DNA from: Cruorifilaria tuberocauda
Taxonomy: Eukaryota > Nematoda > Chromadorea > Rhabditida > Onchocercidae
Assembly (NCBI GenBank): GCA_013365365.1
Contig: JABVXU010000171.1
Location: forward strand, 42,565-106,564
DNA length: 64,000 nt
Direction of reading: 5' to 3'
The position numbers and the translations under genes were made by a program. Below the pieces are notes generated by a model that was not told where the DNA came from, ran no database searches, and saw only the letters and a list, made by a program, of their open reading frames with translations. Shown in pieces: positions 5,931-54,176 of the stretch (position 1 is its first letter; the number at the start of each line of letters is the position of its first letter).

Positions 5931-7649
5931 AAAAAAGAATAACACTAACTATCAAATCACATTCTTTTCTTTTTCTTGCTTTTTTTAAAAAATCTAACCA
6001 TTCAAAATTTTTTGAAAAAAAATAAAAGAAAAAAGAAAAGAGAGAGATGAAAAATGGATAATTTTTTGAGGTGTAGAGTTGAAAAAAGAAAAGAAAAGGT
6101 TCCTTTTTTCACCTTTTGTATATCAATCAAACCTCTCTCTCTTCTAAATAATACAATAATACAATACAGTGAAGGGAGCAGAAAATTGAGCGGAAATAAT
6201 TTGCCTATGTTTAATTCTCATAACGGTACACAAAGGAAGAATAAATGAATGAAATGGAATGATGATAATGACCAGATGACAGTATCTTTTCTTTTTTATT
6301 GAAAAAAAAATTAATTTTAAAAATTTGCTATTTAAATTATGAATTAAAGATATAAGGAAATATTTGAAATGAGATGAAAAACAAAGAAAATAATAATTGA
6401 AATTCATGCCATCCTATTAAAAATAATTATGTAAATAATGATCATTTTGCATCAGAAAATAGATATATATTCATTACTAATATTCATTCTCATCATAGAT
6501 CGTAGTGTTATCACCGAATTTTTATGAATTGGATGAATGTATTTCAATTCATTACCAATGGATTCAATTAAACCATGAAATGAATAAATGATGATCATTA
6601 TGAATACTATTATCGTTTGTTTAACATTATTCAAATGGATTTAAACCATTTAAACAAAATCACTGAAATAAAAATTTTGAATTCTGTGTTCAAATCTTTA
6701 CCCAATGAATTTTATTAAATATAGTAAATGGTGGAAATTTTTTAATTTCAAAATTTTCTTTTTTTTAAATTCATTAATACACGGATTAGTTCATTGCAAC
6801 ATTTGGTACTTCTTTACAGCTCGTAAATAGCAAATTTCAAAATTATCACCGATGATTCCGTAATTTTACAATCCAATAATCAAATTGTAAAAATACTTGA
6901 TATAAACCTAAAAAACCTTTCACTTCATAGCTAAAAATAATGCAAAAAAATACTTTAAAATTCCTTCATATAGAGATGGCAATGATTTTATGATAATAAA
7001 AAAAAGAAAGGAAAAAGAAAAGGAAACAAATTTCCATTAAACTACCTGCATCACATCATAATTTCCTCTTTTCTTCATTTATACAAGATACGTACTTAAA
7101 TAGAGCATATACTATTGAAATCAATTAAAATTATTTTATTTGACGGTGCCTACTAAGTTGCTAATTTGCTAATTCTATTAGAGTAACTTTCATTCTGAGC
7201 GAAATTGGATGGAAATGAAAACGATTTTCATTATCTTTTTTCTCTTCATTCTAATATTTGAATGCATAAAAGAAATCACTTTTTCTTAATTTACATTCAG
7301 CTTTATGATATGATTTGATGTACATGTTGTATGTACGTAGTCCGGGAAAAAAATATTTAAATCCAAAAAAAAAAAACAAAGTGGTAGGCAAATGAAATAT
7401 GAAAGATGTTAAATGCTTCTTCTCAATTTGGAAAAATATCTAAAATCTTTGCAATTCCAAAAGAAAATGCATTTTTTTTTCAGTATTTCACATAAACCTC
7501 CTAAATTAGGATCTTCAATTAGAGGAATCATTATACATATGTGTTAAGTATTCCATTTCAATTCTAATAAAGTACAACAAGAAAGACTGATGTAACAAAC
7601 AACAATTTGCTGATTTGCAATCAAAACAATTCTTTTTTCCAATTATAAT

Positions 7650-10040
7650 TCATTTTTCGTCACTCTCTTTTGTAATCATTTTTTGAATCCAATGATGCTT
7701 CAGAACATCCGCTAACGGTAAACGTTTGCTTGGTTCTTTTTGAAGAAGCTAAAAATTTGATTAAATTTAATTAATTATTAGGATTTAATTATTAAAATTT
7801 AATTAGTTATTAGGAAAAAAATTCCTTCATCAAGAAAATTATAAAATTGTTAATAATTACATTCAAAATTGTTGTATACACAAAACAATAACTTTTTAAC
7901 TGATTGCAATGGCTTTTTTCCACTCTTTTCGATATATTTTATTAGTTTACTAAAAATACTTATCATTGCTAAAATTTAACGTTCATTTTTCTTTAAACGA
8001 AAATTGGAACGTGAAAATAAGCTCTAATTTATCATTTTAAAAGTTTTCCATCATTTTTCAACCATTAATTAATTGATCAAATTAACGATGATGAAAAGTT
8101 CGACAAGTTATTTGCGTAACTTATGGAAAGAAAATCAAGAAAAAAAAAAGAAAAAGCATTGAAACGAACGCTTGTTATGAGATCTTTTGCACCATCTGGT
8201 ACACTATCCGGAATTGTATATCTACAGTTTCGAATATTGTCGAGAGTAAGTTCTACCGACTGAAATATTTAAAGATTGGAATAATTTTACTGTAATGATA
8301 GTGTAAATGATACGATATATTGAATGTAATTTGAAAAATATTAGTAATTAACACATGATTTTAATGTGATTTACCACAATATTTCAAGATCATCCATTTG
8401 TTAATTACACTTATAAATTTTGGATGCATTCAAACTAATGTTAGTGTTTCTGTGTGTTTAATTTCAGAATATTAAAAGTGCTGCCATTAGGATTCTGTAC
8501 GCGAAATTAAGTTGATTAAATTTTACACATTGATATGTAATAAAATTCAAAAAATAAAAAAGCGAAAATTTAATTCCGTTTACTTTATTCTACGTAACAT
8601 TTCTTTCTGAGAAACTGCAGATTAATTCTATAGTTAGTATGATAAGACGGAATCAAATATTTCTTTTACCTTAGCTTCAAATGCAGGCCTACCAACTAAA
8701 AATTCATAGAGTATAACACCCAATGACCAATTATCAACTTTTGAATCATGCGTTTTATCGGGTGCCACTTCTGGTGCTATGTAATCCAACGTACCACACA
8801 CGATATTTCGTCTAAACAAAAAAAAAGAACAAAATGTTTTTGAAAATTTTCATTAAATGTGACAGTTTTAACTATTTTTAAAATAGATAAGCGGTAAATG
8901 TAAATTAAATGATTGAAATGCGATATTTTCTAATTTCAAATAAATTGAAGGAACAAATTTCTTCGGTAGAATTTTCCCTTCAAAAAAAATATTTCACAGA
9001 GCGCGAAATAAATTGCTACACTCGACAGTTGTTGGGAAAAGTTTTAAAATAATTGGAAATTCTAATATTGAGATGAAATCAATGATCATTATAATTCTGA
9101 GACTAACAAACAATAACTAAATAATACCTTGATGAAGGTTCATGTACTGACCACCCAAAATCGGATATTTTCAAATCACCATTTGCACTAATAAGAACAT
9201 TTTCAGGTTTCAAATCTCGATGTATCACTTTCTTATCTTGACAATATTCCATAGCTGATGTCAATTGATACATGTATTTAGCAGCTAATTCGGGTGGGAA
9301 TGTTTTCATCTGAATAAAAATTTTGCTTATTAACAAAATGAAAATGAATTTATATAATATCATTAATTTTAAAATGATTATCAACTGAATTAAATTTGAA
9401 AAAATCAAAAAAATGTGAACAAAATAGATTGAACTTTAAACAATCCATCGATACCACTTGAAGTTGTTGAAAGACATTTCCTTTCGGAGCAAATTCTAAC
9501 ACTAAATAGACGCATTCTTCATCATGAAAATAACCATATAAGCGAAGAATATTCCGATGCCTAAACTTAATATACATAAACATCATCAAAAGTTTACCTA
9601 TACCGCCTTTACCAACAAGTTATCTTTATTTTTTAGAGAAAATAAACAAACATTGAAATATGCCAATTCTCATCTATTCGTGTAATATTAGGGTAAAAGG
9701 TCAGATAGTAATGTATCGCGCAAAACACTTCATTTAAAATTCCAATTTTAGTTTCAAATATCTACCTTAAATGAAACTGAATTTCAATTTCACGTCGTAA
9801 TTGCAATTTCAAATTATTGTCCTCCAATTGTGATTTATACACGGCTTTAATAGCAACGACAAATTTGGATTCAATTTCTCGAGCCAAATATACACTTCCA
9901 AATCTACCTTTACCCAACTGTCGGCCAATATCGAAATCTTTCAACGACCATTGACGAGTTTTTGGTCGTACATCAACAACAGAACAAACCTCATTAAACT
10001 TAGTGACAAGATCCTCATCATCTGATAATTGTTCATCCAT
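7650..10040 (-). CDS. Divergent Aurora kinase (Ser/Thr kinase)
   Basis: Six exons, all in phase: 9766-10040, 9455-9560, 9128-9309, 8670-8811, 8170-8259, 7650-7748; about 297 aa. Aurora kinases drive centrosome, spindle and chromosome-passenger steps of mitosis. Visible: glycine loop GKGRFG (about 43-48), VAIK lysine 65, alpha-C Glu 84 in LRREIEIQ, the Aurora signature [21 protein letters not shown] (157-164), [13 protein letters not shown] (177-189), [10 protein letters not shown], and a C-lobe ending WIQKM near residue 286. The start is the first ATG, 7 nt behind an acceptor (TTTCACAG at 10048), so the mRNA is probably trans-spliced. The hinge (APKGNVF) and SSRR before CGT look closer to Aurora A than B. 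Odd: the activation loop reads RRNIVCGT, lacking the Thr normally phosphorylated (see findings). The exon-2 donor could lie 3 nt earlier, removing one residue. It sits 133 bp behind the stop of the upstream gene. Confidence 0.9.
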
Positions 10041-10046
10041 AGAATT

Positions 10047-10050
10047 CCTG
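10047..10050 (-). promoter_or_regulatory. Probable trans-splice acceptor of the Aurora gene
   Basis: TTTGTTTCACAG precedes GAATTCT-ATG. Joining it to the upstream donor at 10231-10232 would put the kinase out of frame, so a spliced-leader acceptor in an operon is the better reading. Confidence 0.55.
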
Positions 10051-10180
10051 TGAAACAAAAAGAAGTTTACAATCCAATGAGAAATCTTAAAAATTTAAAC
10101 ATAACATTATAAAAAATGCGAATAACATTTTATCCAACAGTATTAAGACCTATTTTAAAAAGAGTTCTAAGACTTATTTT

Positions 10181-10792
10181 TTAAATCATAAGTCTTAATA
10201 CTAAATCACCATAAAAACAACTTATGAATTTACCTGCAGATGGAATGTTAGAAGATAAATGAAAGAACGATTTGTACAGATCCACATCTACATTATCTCG
10301 AAGATCAAAAAAACATTCAAAAGAAAGATCTGGAGAAAATTTGATGTTTTTCGCATTAATTTCCAATTGCTTCACAAAATTAACTACATTTTCGTATTTC
10401 GAATGGAAAATTTATTAATTTAAAAGCGCTATAAATGCATACAAATATATAATTTATTTGAAAAATATGTCATTTCCCATTTCAAAGGATCTCATTCACT
10501 TTTCAAAATTAATTCAGAATTTTACGCCATAAATTTTTGAATTTTATTAACTTTTGCCATATTTCTCGAATATTCTAACTTCAATTTCTGAAATAATTCG
10601 AGATTTGCAAAACTTCAGACATATGAAAATGATTCTCCTTGCATTTCCACTTGTTACTTCATTTTCGACATGAAAAATACTAGTGGAAATGCCAAAAGTA
10701 TCATCAATACATTCTTCTATCAAATCCCAATCTTTTATTTCTTTAAACTGGCATAAATATTCCGAAAATAATGAATATCTCAACGTTTCCAT
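10181..10792 (-). CDS. Unknown 147-aa protein, first gene of a likely operon
   Basis: Two exons, 10552-10792 and 10181-10383, joined in phase (AAA A|TT gives Lys-Ile). The ATG at 10792 opens METLRYSLFSEYLCQF and lies about 20 nt behind a possible acceptor (TTTCATCAG). The chain is acidic to neutral, with no signal peptide, membrane segment or motif I recognise; I cannot assign a family. A good donor (CTGCAG|GTAAAT) lies inside the last exon about 17 codons before the stop, so a different C-terminus is possible, but splicing from it to the kinase acceptor breaks the kinase frame. Its close tandem position to the Aurora gene suggests co-transcription. Confidence 0.55.
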
Positions 10793-11763
10793 TTATGTAT
10801 ATTTTCAAACTGTCTGATGAAATAATTATTATCATACGTGGCATAAGATTTAGTGATCATCTGAATGCTTAATTCAAATAGATCAATATTTTATATGAGA
10901 AACAAAAGATAGGGATGTGTTTTTAATTTCAAAACATATCCATGCATATATTTTAAATTAATATGAAATAGATGAGTAATAACTTTATAAAATATCTGAA
11001 ATTGATATCTATGCTCGGTTTATTCAGCTCCTGTCGTGAATGACGGTACGAGAAAGAATATGATCACAAATCGTGGTTAAATCAATATTTCAAAATTCAC
11101 TAGTAAAATTCCTGGAATCTTTTGTAACGCAAAATTTAAATATTAAATAATATCAAATTTTACACAGTGTATAACTGGACCAGAAAATTATCAAAAAAAA
11201 TAATCATATATTGTTCCATATTAATCAGTTACATCAACCACTGTAAAAAAAGTCGGAAAACTCTTGAATTCCTTTAAAATAATTAAATTGGAGTGAAGCA
11301 TAAATAACTTTCACGTACTATCAATAAAATAGAAATCAATCAACGGTTTCGAAAATATAAACTTTCCTAGAGGTATTATTTCTGTATCTACAATACACAA
11401 AAGGAACAAAAATGTAAATGCCTTTGTTTAAATCCTGTGCTTAAAAAATAGCAAAGAAAAAATTGATTAGATAACAGGATGGCGGGCCAGAAATGATGTA
11501 AACATTAGATTCCTTAAAAAGGCTTCTATCAAACTTTCAACTTTTAAGCATCAATGGAGAAAAGAAGCCCATAAGATGAAAATTATTTTTAAAAAACAAA
11601 AGATAAATAGTAGCACATTTGTACATCAGAATGAAATATACAGAAAATTATTGCTTGGAATTGTTAAGTGATTTTATTCTGAAAATGTAATGCACCCAAA
11701 TCCTTGAATACTCGAACTTCCAAGTGATTCCAGATGAAACATTCATTTTAGCAGAAATTCATT
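10793..11763. other. Intergenic spacer, nothing recognised
   Basis: AT-rich spacer between the MADF gene and the operon, both on the minus strand; it should hold the 3' UTR of the former and the promoter of the latter, but no defined element is visible. Confidence 0.5.
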
Positions 11764-13141
11764 TCATATCATCTTTAACTTCCAAAGAATGATCTGCCTC
11801 TGTTTTCATGGCCAATAAATCCGACCTATAATGTGATATAAAGTGATGATGTCTCTTATTCATGCCCAGAACTTACATAAAGCACAAAACACCGAATGGA
11901 TGAGATTGTACGAAGATTCCTTACTGAAATGAGAAATCTTACATTACCTATCATTTGGGCAGTTATCATCTTCCGATTCGCTTTCGAGAACTGTTGAATG
12001 AATCGCAGAATCATCGTCTGATTCACTATCCAAAACTATTGGTTGAACTGTCCTTGGACGTCTGAAAAAACCACTTTCTCAACTTTAAATTCGTTGTAAT
12101 AGAAGGCTGATAAAACAGTTATTTGTATGGTAAGTGATAATTCGAAACTAGTGAATATCAAAAATGATTAAACTATTCACTTTCTATAAATAAGTTTTTT
12201 GAAGAGCGAAGTTCAATGACAAGTTTTGGGAATTTCTTTAAATCTTGAATAACTCTTTTAAATTGGATATCCAAACATTGCATTAAACTTACACTGGCCC
12301 CAACGTATTGGCCGCATATTATATCTACATAATCCTGTATTTCGTTTAGGATTTTTCGGTTGAGTGAAGAAAAATATTTTTTCTTTTATTTTATTTATAC
12401 TTAAAAATCTTATTCTGCTTATTTATATTCAAAAAAGGAAAATTTTGAGAAGTTTTTAACAGGAAAAAGAAAGAAAGAAAAGTTACGCTTTATAATCATC
12501 AAGAAATGGATTGAGAAATGCAAGCGAATCGAAATATTTTGCGCAAGAACTCCTCAAAGGGGGAGTGCCTTGGATTCTTCTTAATGTTCGATCCCGAGTA
12601 TAAGCGAATTTCAGCTTATTCCATCTCCTACGACATCCATCATCTAAATTATTAAACGATGATATCATTGGTGATGATACCAGGAAAGTTCGGGAAAGAA
12701 TCGATTATACTAATCATTGTAGTTATTCAATATTTTTCTCGTAAAACATCACTTCCAATGTCAATGTATACAAACATATTCAATCTACTTGTTAAGAAAT
12801 TGAAGCTGGCCAGTAACTTCAGAAATGAGGTGTTTTTGAATTTATATGAATTTTTGATATAAATCTGCTGCATAAATTCCATTTCTCAGCACTTTTGACG
12901 TCATTTATCAGTTTTAATTTGTAAACAAGTAGACTGAAAATTAATTGAAAATTCCTTCAAAAAAAATATGCGAAGAGAAATCACCGTTAATATCATGCCC
13001 TCGTTGCTGCATACACTTTGCAACGGCCTGCCATGCCTTCTCACGTCTTGAACCTCGTTTTTGATAACCCTTCATACGTATATCATAAATTATAGGATGT
13101 GCTTTTACTACTTCGATGAGATCATCGAAAATCGTTGACAT
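11764..13141 (-). CDS. MADF-domain protein
   Basis: Four exons in phase: 12985-13141, 12487-12643, 11948-12061, 11764-11825; about 164 aa. MADF is a Myb/SANT-like DNA-binding helical domain. It fills the first 95 or so residues: LIEVVKAHPIIYDIRMKGYQ, REKAWQAVAKCM, then after the first intron RRRWNKLKFAYTRDR, with the spaced tryptophans and the RWxxLR-like third helix. The tail is acidic, with two similar LDSESDDD / LESESEDD segments, and ends SLEVKDDMK. No BESS motif is evident. The ATG lies 8 nt behind an acceptor (TTATTTCAG), again suggesting trans-splicing. It probably acts in the nucleus as a transcription regulator; the target is unknown. Confidence 0.8.
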
Positions 13142-17600: not shown

Positions 17601-18128
17601 GTAACACTTCAAGTAAGGTAATACTTCTTTTTGAACGTACCACTACGAATTATTTAACAATTTTAACAAAAAAGGAATATCGACTGTCCAACAAACAGAC
17701 GTCTCGATATTCACACGTTTTGCCCGGCTCGTAAAAGTCTTCAGAGGCGAATCATTATGCTGATTGCTAAACGAGCACTTTAACCTGGTCTTACAATGTC
17801 GGCCATCAGGAACTGTCTTATTGTCGAACACGTTGCAAGTGTCCGACATTTCAATCAAAATCCTTGGGTCCGTCCAGTGCAGTGCAATCTTGTTTGATAT
17901 ACGAGTTTTCCAAGAAAGAAAGCAAACCTCCGATCTTAATCGCTTAATATTTTCGCCACCTTTGCCGATGATTCCACCAGCCCCACGACTGGACACTAAG
18001 AGTCTTAATTCATATTTACCAGCCGCCAATGCTTCTTGATAACTGTCTGGCCGTTGTCGTTTGCCGGATTTTGAGCTTTCATGATTATCCGATGGGCCTA
18101 AATCATCGTCACCACCATGGCGCTTCAT
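14603..18128 (-). CDS. hrpk-1: hnRNP K-type protein with three KH domains
   Basis: Eight exons in phase: 17928-18128, 17246-17289, 16602-16674, 16039-16170, 15569-15676, 15147-15383, 14857-15041, 14603-14648; 341 aa. The family binds C-rich single-stranded RNA/DNA and works in splicing, translation and, in C. elegans, with microRNAs. KH1 (about 38-105) carries [16 protein letters not shown]2 (about 113-185) [16 protein letters not shown]3 (about 263-326) [14 protein letters not shown]; all GxxG loops are intact. The N-terminus is polar, ending in a basic GKRQR stretch (likely nuclear localisation). Between KH2 and KH3 is a Gly/Pro/Arg/Tyr-rich linker ([19 protein letters not shown]), as in hnRNP K. 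The C-terminus [17 protein letters not shown] lies in a tiny last exon. The ATG follows a possible acceptor at 18165. It is divergent from the NUP42-like gene, 970 bp away. Confidence 0.93.
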
Positions 18129-19100
18129 CGTGCTTTAGCCCCACTAGCAAACTCCTCTACAATAAGATGTGAAGATGAAAAAAAAACAGAATACGTCACT
18201 AGGATGTTATCCATGTAGTCACATTATAATGCAAAAGGTGTGTAGTGAAAATATTATTGAACTAAATATTCAATTTGATCTGATCCCATTCTTCATTCAT
18301 GCATTTGGAATTGCTTAATTCAATCTTACAATATGTGCAAGAACGTACAAAAGTCAAGATCATTTAAACATGGATAGAACCTTCCACATCCATTTACTGC
18401 TCTGTTTATAGGAACTGTAAGAAAGAGAATCTCAAAAAGGTTATAAAGACCACATAAATTTCTATGAACAATCTGCAGAATAACTGGCGTAAGATAGAGA
18501 AAAATGAAATTAGTCTAAGTGAAACATTTAAGCGAACCTCCGAACAATAAGTTAAACAAGATTAACCGATATATCGTAATAAGAACTACGAACCCTGAAT
18601 GGCAACGGGAACCGGCAGAAGGAACCTCAAGACAACCAGCAGCAAAGGTAAATAACTTTGTTCTATAAAAGATCGAATAAATATCAATCACCAAAATTCG
18701 CACTGAACATTTGTACGCAGTACGAACTTACGCAGAATATGAAAAAACGTCTTCCCTTTCATATTCGGTTTATCCTAAGTTATAAATTGATTATGATCTT
18801 CGCATTAATTTGTTTTTGGTCAAGTAAAAGGTCAGGTGAGTTCTTCATTTTAATTTTTTTCTCATTTTCCATCAATGCATTATTTCATTAATTTTAGGCG
18901 AAGTGGATGATTCATTTTGCAATTCAAATATTCTTACAATCAACAAAATGTTGATTTGTATTATAGCTCTTGGATTTTAATTTGTGTGAACTAGTACAGG
19001 TAGTAGTATCTTGAGAATGTATATTTCTAGTTTGCAGTTTTCTGGGTTTATTATTTTGTTTTCAATGAATCTTTTTTCTCAGAGATTTGCAATAATCATC
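18129..19100. promoter_or_regulatory. Shared upstream region of two divergent genes
   Basis: The 970 bp between the hnRNP K start and the CCCH-protein start must hold both promoters. The open frames inside are short and lack splice support. I cannot name a specific element; a TTTTTTCTCAG acceptor ends it on the plus side at 19082. Confidence 0.4.
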
Positions 19101-53416: not shown

Positions 53417-53929
53417 ATCGAGAAGATCCATTTGTCTCATTAGGCATAAGACAGAAAGTTTTACCTCAATATGCAATGCTTACTTAATTGATAGTCTTTA
53501 GTGAATTTGAACTTAAATAAGATAGATAATATAAAAATAACGATAGATAAAGAATAAGATCGATAATAAGATAACTCTTATTTAACTAATTCATCAAATA
53601 GTAAAGAAGATACTTATTGTCTCGTGTCATCTGATATTAATTTAGTATTTCTACAATTTCAGGTGTCTATTAAATTACAGTCTGTATGAAATTAAATGAT
53701 AATAAGTAATCAATAATCGTACCCGTAATAACAATTGCTAATAATACAACCGTAATGATAGTAATAATAATGGTAAATGATATGATATAGTGATAACGGA
53801 AAATTACTATATTATTATCACATTATCATATCACAACATTTTATGATTAAAATTTTGTGATCAAAAGATAATGATAGGGAAAAATTAATTGAAACTAATC
53901 AATAATTGTATACCACCCGACGGGTAGTT

Positions 53930-54003
53930 GCCTGAGTAGCGCAGTAGGTTAGCGCGTCAGTCTCATAATCTGAAGGTCGTGAGTTCGAACCTCACCTCGG
54001 GCA
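53930..54003 (+). tRNA. tRNA-Met (anticodon CAT), elongator type
   Basis: A full cloverleaf without intron. The acceptor stem GCCTGAG pairs with CTCGGGC (one G-U), with discriminator A at 54003; the D arm contains TAGCGCAGTAGG (A box), the anticodon loop CTCATAA, the T arm GTGAG-TTCGAAC-CTCAC (B box). The anticodon arm GCGTCAGTCTCATAATCTGA and the G1:C72 pair match eukaryotic elongator tRNA-Met rather than the initiator (A1:U72). Only a short T run (CCCTTT) follows, so termination is weak or further downstream. Confidence 0.95.
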
Positions 54004-54176
54004 TTCCCTTTGCAGAACTTGCTGAACAATATAGGATATTAAAAAACTCCCATATTATATTTCAGACTTGCAAATTGCAATAATTTCGTTTGTAACTACT
54101 AACAAGAATTAGGGGTTATTTTATGAAATTATTGAAATAAGGATAAAATTCGGTAAATTATTTAATATGAAATGAT

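What the first reader, a model, noticed from the sequence alone, without database searches (positions are those of the whole stretch)
8670..9309. Aurora kinase with its activating threonine replaced by isoleucine
Seen: the activation loop, read across the 9128/8811 splice, is [13 protein letters not shown]. Aurora A has SSRRTTLCGTLDY there, and Aurora B RRKTMCGT; the second T (T288 in human Aurora A) is autophosphorylated for activity. Here both T positions are N and I (Ile about 191), while the catalytic Lys, Glu, HRD Asp and DFG Asp are all present. Inference: a divergent Aurora paralogue that works without loop phosphorylation, through partner binding only, or that has taken on another role. 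If conserved in related worms this would also alter the drug-binding state of the kinase.
Basis: partly seen in the sequence, partly recalled or inferred. Interest (0 to 1): 0.75.

Follow-up and report, generated by a model that had tools for sequence, protein, structure and literature searches.

The report
Filarial Aurora kinase without activating threonine
In filarial worms one copy of the cell-division kinase Aurora A has, in several species including this one, replaced the threonine that the kinase normally phosphorylates to switch itself on, so it is probably switched on by a partner protein instead.

Summary
A six-exon minus-strand gene (10040-7650, 296 aa, GT-AG introns) encodes an Aurora A-type kinase with loop SSRRN189-I190-VCGT; N189/I190 align with human T287/T288. 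It is not a sequencing slip: Cercopithifilaria johnstoni, Onchocerca volvulus and O. flexuosa records carry the same N-I, Elaeophora elaphi N-N. All fall in one filarial Aurora A group ("X", clade support 100/100). Acanthocheilonema, Loa, Wuchereria and Setaria X keep the second Thr. Of 268 aligned Aurora-like rows with a residue there, 263 have Thr; the 5 exceptions are all X. The same genome has a canonical copy "Y" (KRTTVCGT) and an Aurora B. The loss looks recurrent (3 changes; single clade rejected, p-AU 1.2e-7). Catalytic residues and three phosphate-pocket arginines are kept, so an active kinase is likelier than a pseudokinase. Best model (inferred): partner activation. Phospho-Bora supplies the missing phosphate in trans to human AURKA T288V (PMC7997955), and this genome encodes a Bora with the Ser-Pro motif. 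No biochemical, RNA or population evidence was available.

The parts
9766..10040 (-). Exon 1 of Aurora A paralogue X: short N-terminus, GKGRFG loop, K65 (=K162), E84 (=E181)
   Evidence: gene model; homologues; PF00069
9458..9560 (-). Exon 2: N-lobe, hinge, G101 (=G198, Aurora A-type)
9128..9309 (-). Exon 3: HRD 156-158, DFG 176-178, start of activation loop (SSR)
8670..8811 (-). Exon 4: R188-N189-I190-V-C-G-T194, APE, to EAK
8170..8259 (-). Exon 5 of the kinase C-lobe
   Evidence: same exon length (90) in the Y paralogue
7650..7748 (-). Exon 6 and stop
8802..8807 (-). Codons AAT ATC = Asn189 Ile190 in place of human T287/T288
9164..9224 (-). 61-bp stretch identical to the Y paralogue (HRD to just before DFG), read as a Y-to-X gene-conversion tract ending before the loop
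   Evidence: longest identical run 61 nt, most in 2000 shuffles 38; 21 of 21 same-residue codons identical versus 101 of 182 elsewhere

Best explanation
The gene is the X copy of a filarial duplication of Aurora A (nematode AIR-1 type), and it encodes a still-active kinase. Shown by sequence: X has Asn for the first loop Thr (T287; Ser in Setaria), and the autophosphorylated Thr (T288) was replaced, probably more than once, by Ile or Asn, while the catalytic residues, most of the partner groove and the phosphate-binding arginines stayed. Inferred: X cannot autophosphorylate at this site and is switched on by cofactor binding, most likely by Cdk-phosphorylated Bora/SPAT-1, whose Ser-Pro phosphate occupies the arginine pocket in trans, with or without a TPX2-like protein. 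In this genome the Y copy would keep the classical self-phosphorylating role.
For: X clade 100/100. Thr lost in 5 of the 9 X sequences that have a residue there (a second Wuchereria model, P0005, with Thr is not counted). Equivalents of K162, E181, R180, R255, D256, N261, D274, R286, T292, P298 and E299 are unchanged in the five non-Thr X proteins wherever the record covers them; the O. flexuosa fragment lacks the N-lobe. Differences between X relatives are rarer in the conserved core: this gene vs A. viteae 8 of 124 conserved columns against 27 of 131 others; E. elaphi 9/124 vs 28/131; C. johnstoni 3/124 vs 21/131. Published: phospho-Bora activates human AURKA T288V in vitro and T288V works in Xenopus extracts, needing R180, R255, R286 and H176 (PMC7997955 abstract, sections 8 and 9, and passages). 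Bora is encoded in this genome: joined exon pieces score 80.6 bits for BORA_N against a 27-bit cut-off, and the exon with NKFWKSQKYVLPSP raises the score from 65.6.
Against: H176, the fourth phosphate contact, is Leu here and Arg or Leu in other X; it is also not His in 6 of 7 Y rows, so the weakness is not specific to X. Human T288V alone, or with unphosphorylated Bora, is inactive, so this needs phospho-Bora or compensating changes not identified. The aromatic-pair-to-Ser spacing in the filarial Bora is one residue longer than human F104-S112 (against the numbering). No TPX2-family match passed its cut-off. X core columns change more than Y core columns (Y pairs 1/124 and 4/122). Thr is retained in 4 of 9 X sequences. 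No expression or activity data.
Confidence: 0.5

Rival explanations
1. Relaxed duplicate: Y does the Aurora A work, and X is drifting toward loss of regulation or toward a pseudokinase or scaffold; Thr loss is an early step of decay.
For: X departs from the 124 conserved Aurora columns somewhat more than Y (11-19 in the 8 X rows covering at least 120 of them, 9-15 in the 7 Y rows). X pairs differ at 3-9 of 120-124 core columns, Y pairs at 1/124 and 4/122. End branch 0.19 for this X versus 0.098 for its Y. Thr replaced by both Ile and Asn.
Against: Catalytic and pocket arginine residues intact in every X sequence that covers them, ten species, eight of them covering both lobes. Substitutions still avoid the core. 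Open reading frame and splice sites intact here. The duplication is old: Setaria has both copies.
Confidence: 0.25
2. Constitutive kinase: Ile or Asn in the pocket, with other X changes, stabilises the active loop without phosphate or partner.
For: Hydrophobic Ile in 4 of the 5 non-Thr X sequences.
Against: Human T288V shows negligible activity alone. Three arginines would face an uncharged side chain. No acidic residue replaces the neighbours of position 190 in the loops printed.
Confidence: 0.12
3. Another loop site, such as S185/S186 (human S283/S284) or T194 (T292), is phosphorylated instead.
For: Ser-Ser is conserved in the X rows that cover it.
Against: These residues are conserved in ordinary Auroras too (S283 in 238, S284 in 247 and T292 in 251 of 251 other rows), so they are not a compensation.
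Confidence: 0.08
4. Assembly, base-call or splice error; the true residue is Thr.
For: No reads were available to check the bases.
Against: Same N-I in C. johnstoni, O. volvulus and O. flexuosa records; no alternative loop exon in 7001-11000; no second copy found.
Confidence: 0.02

Closest known systems
Aurora A / AIR-1 (filarial Y paralogue; human AURKA)
   Same: Catalytic motifs, Gly198-type residue, R180/R255/R286 pocket; Y in the same genome has six exons split at the same places, with one extra codon at the end of exon 2
   Different: T287 and T288 equivalents are Asn and Ile; H176 is Leu (Arg in Y)
AURKA T288V laboratory mutant activated by phospho-Bora (PMC7997955)
   Same: Non-phosphorylatable aliphatic residue at 288 with intact pocket arginines
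   Different: Natural, probably recurrent and in a paralogue; response to Bora not tested; H176 absent
Aurora B (this genome, C1045)
   Same: Kinase fold and loop context
   Different: Aurora B has RRATMCGT and Asn at the G198 position (YNYFYD)

Membership tests
Aurora kinase family | Protein kinase domain with Aurora as nearest relatives | tested here: met
   PF00069 231 bits; the 60 best PDB sequences shown are Aurora A or its synonyms; tree
Aurora kinase family | Catalytic Lys, Glu, HRD Asp, DFG Asp | tested here: met
Aurora A subfamily | Gly at 198 (recalled TPX2/INCENP selector) | tested here: met
   G101; Asn in the Aurora B of the same genome
Aurora activated by T-loop autophosphorylation | Phosphorylatable residue at T288 | tested here: not met
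   Ile190
Aurora activated by phosphate supplied in trans by Bora | R180, R255, R286 and H176 on the kinase | tested here: inconclusive
   three arginines met, H176 not (Leu79)
Aurora activated by phosphate supplied in trans by Bora | Bora with M2 aromatic pair and Ser-Pro motif in the genome | tested here: met
   spacing one residue longer than in human
Aurora activated by phosphate supplied in trans by Bora | Activation by phospho-Bora in an assay | not testable with these tools
   needs protein
Pseudokinase | Loss of catalytic residues | tested here: not met

The most novel reading that the evidence does not exclude
One paralogue of Aurora A has, repeatedly and in parallel, handed its activating phosphate over to a partner: a naturally obligate trans-activated Aurora (phospho-Bora/SPAT-1 dependent), splitting the two activation modes of Aurora A between two genes, with gene conversion from the canonical copy renewing the catalytic loop but leaving the loop change in place.
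Probability: 0.3. Interest if true: 0.8.

Novelty: new variant of a known kind. Interest (0 to 1): 0.6.

Why it matters
The T-loop Thr was present in 251 of 251 rows outside the filarial X and Y groups (one of those rows, P0212, is a Loa Aurora B). A paralogue that has lost it, probably several times, while keeping the rest of the kinase is a natural counterpart of the T288V mutant used to show activation in trans by Bora. It would let one ask directly whether Aurora A's two activation modes can be divided between genes. It also shows that some filarial worms (this genome, Setaria, and by the records seen Wuchereria and Dirofilaria) carry two Aurora A-type copies, which a model built on C. elegans alone (one AIR-1, recalled) would miss.

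Tried and rejected
Assembly or splice error: rejected. TPX2 as partner: PF09041 gave one hit of 16.3 bits, below its 21-bit cut-off. On reading, it lies in a pyrimidine-rich stretch just before a 3' splice site, apparently an intron of another gene, so it is not counted. PF06886 found nothing; the tool warns that this does not show absence. INCENP (PF03941) was found but belongs to the Aurora B side. For all four families the tool's 14 control genomes rang in 0, so those controls tell nothing. dN/dS was not done: for the other worms only proteins were at hand. No structure was predicted: a static model would not settle activation. The species was not identified; the nearest X sequences are A. 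viteae and C. johnstoni.

The gene-conversion test shuffles codons and so ignores regional constraint; the tract was chosen after looking. Direction (Y to X) rests on the 8 other X rows with a residue at G170 all having N, S or E where this X agrees with Y.

A Y copy was seen by name only for this genome, Setaria, Dirofilaria and, as Y-type rows that pair apart, Brugia and Wuchereria. For O. volvulus, O. flexuosa, C. johnstoni, A. viteae, Loa and E. elaphi none was listed under their name; the lists are capped and the database is clustered at 90% identity, so absence is not shown. Y-type rows are not resolved as one clade, and the place of Thelazia relative to the duplication is open.

Literature: listings of searches (4 of 4 shown; 2 of 2; 4 of 4; 3 of 3; 12 of 75) show no title or abstract start describing a filarial Aurora duplicate or a natural Aurora without the T-loop Thr; most subscription papers are not held. 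Papers opened: PMC7997955 (abstract, sections 8 and 9, passages), PMC5849412 (passages), PMC12953780 (part 1 of 2), PMC8080662 (passages); others only as listings.

Full report
What is there. On the minus strand, 10040-7650, six exons with GT-AG introns give a 296-residue protein. The best Pfam match is the protein kinase domain (PF00069, 231 bits), and the 60 best solved-structure sequences shown are Aurora A. The loop reads [13 protein letters not shown]. By alignment to the Aurora A chains, N189 and I190 stand where 3d14_A has T-T (human T287 and T288, recalled numbering).

Is it real? A motif scan of the gene region found no other loop exon, and a DNA search of the 71.7-Mb assembly finds these two exons once, plus a paralogue at 88% and 78% identity. 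Three homologue searches (best 120 listed of 7469, 7536 and 6758) gave 267 different proteins. In one alignment of these plus the window protein and its paralogue (269 rows), 263 of 268 rows with a residue at this column have Thr, 4 have Ile and 1 has Asn; one row (D. immitis P0014) has a gap. The Ile rows are this gene, C. johnstoni, O. volvulus and O. flexuosa; the Asn row is E. elaphi. Outside the filarial X and Y groups the count is 251 of 251 Thr, one of them a Loa Aurora B. Many rows are vertebrate and all are near hits, so this is not a census.

Three Auroras in one genome. The assembly (window = C190:42565-106564) also holds a canonical Aurora A, called Y here (C662:16173-14359, 300 aa, loop SSKRTTVCGT, six exons split at the same places with one extra codon at the end of exon 2), and an Aurora B (C1045, loop RRATMCGT and YNYFYD in place of YGYFHD). 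In a tree of 24 chosen rows the nine X sequences form one clade with 100/100 support. Setaria has an X and a Y-type copy, so the duplication predates the split of Setaria from the other filariae sampled. The Y-type rows are not resolved as a clade of their own, and Thelazia's place is open. A Y record was not listed under the names of the other species whose X lacks Thr, which may be due to capped, clustered lists.

Recurrent loss. With the two loop residues masked, a tree of 16 chosen rows needs three changes between Thr and not-Thr (15 rows counted, D. immitis X left out), and holding the five non-Thr sequences together as one clade is rejected (p-AU 1.2e-7). Many inner branches of that tree are weak (1 of 13 starred), the O. 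flexuosa row is 46% filled, and reversal to Thr is not excluded, so 'more than once' is the safe reading. T287 is Asn in 8 of the 9 X sequences that have a residue there and Ser in Setaria, so its loss is shared more widely and probably came first.

Still a kinase? In the X sequences, wherever the record covers them, the equivalents of K162, E181, R180, R255, D256, N261, D274, R286, T292 and P298 are unchanged, and E299 too except in D. immitis P0014, next to the missing part where the alignment has no meaning. Differences between X relatives fall mainly outside the conserved core: 8 of 124 conserved against 27 of 131 other columns for this gene versus A. viteae, 9/124 against 28/131 for E. 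elaphi, 3/124 against 21/131 for C. johnstoni, 6/120 against 19/120 for O. volvulus versus Loa. X is less constrained than Y: Y pairs differ at 1/124 and 4/122 core columns, and this X departs from the common residue at 15 core columns against 11 in its Y. That fits a constrained but changed enzyme better than decay, without excluding early relaxation.

Gene conversion. A 61-bp stretch of exon 3 (9224-9164, HRD to just before DFG) is identical between X and Y in this genome, while overall third-position identity is 55%. Of same-residue codons, 21 of 21 in the tract are identical against 101 of 182 elsewhere; the longest run in 2000 codon shuffles was 38. The 8 other X rows with a residue at G170 all differ there, so the likely direction is Y to X. 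The tract ends 13 codons short of the Asn-Ile pair and did not restore Thr.

How it probably works. T288 phosphorylation raises human AURKA activity about 100-fold, and TPX2 and phosphorylation act independently and together (PMC5849412 passages). Human T288V is inactive alone and with unphosphorylated Bora, but is strongly activated by Cdk-phosphorylated Bora, and works in Xenopus egg extracts (PMC7997955 sections 8 and 9). The response needs R180, R255, R286 and H176 on the kinase and phospho-S112 on Bora (passages). X has the three arginines but Leu for H176. The same genome encodes Bora (PF15280 hits at C126:76249-76347 and 76441-76566). Joined with the next exon, with approximate boundaries, the match is 80.6 bits and reaches profile position 111, against 65.6 bits and position 71 without it. 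That exon carries NKFWKSQKYVLPSP, corresponding to the second TPX2-like motif and the Ser-Pro site, one residue longer in spacing than the human numbering implies. KSFNWS resembles the Phe56/Trp58 pair that binds PLK1 (PMC12953780; by eye). I therefore think activation in trans by phospho-Bora, perhaps helped by other groove-binding partners, is the most likely way X works. This step is inference (about 0.5 for partner activation in general, 0.3 for Bora in particular).

Verdict. It is a new variant of a known kind, not a new family.

Noticed in passing
window 9224-9164 and C662:15546-15365 (L009): 61-bp identical tract between the two Aurora A paralogues, probably recent gene conversion from Y into X.
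   Followed up: partly
window 11944-12078 (-): An acidic ORF upstream of the kinase (PRTVQPIVLDSESDDDSAIHST...) matches by eye the N-terminal part of the D. immitis record P0014, which fuses it to its Aurora X: conserved gene order and probably a fused gene model.
   Followed up: no
D. immitis protein record P0014: The record lacks the stretch with HRD, DFG and loop although its flanks align; probably a gene-model problem. Not mended.
   Followed up: no
G000 C126:76249-76720 (L014, L017): Bora (aurora borealis) homologue with, by eye, the PLK1-binding F-x-W and the Ser-Pro motif.
   Followed up: partly
window 17643-18134 (-): ORF with a KH-domain-like motif ([13 protein letters not shown]), hnRNP K-like by eye.
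   Followed up: no
window 53929-54004 (+): tRNA-Met gene.
   Followed up: no
P0011 (Brugia) and P0043 (Wuchereria): These Y-type Auroras pair apart on a longer stem (0.24) and may be a faster or separate copy.
   Followed up: no
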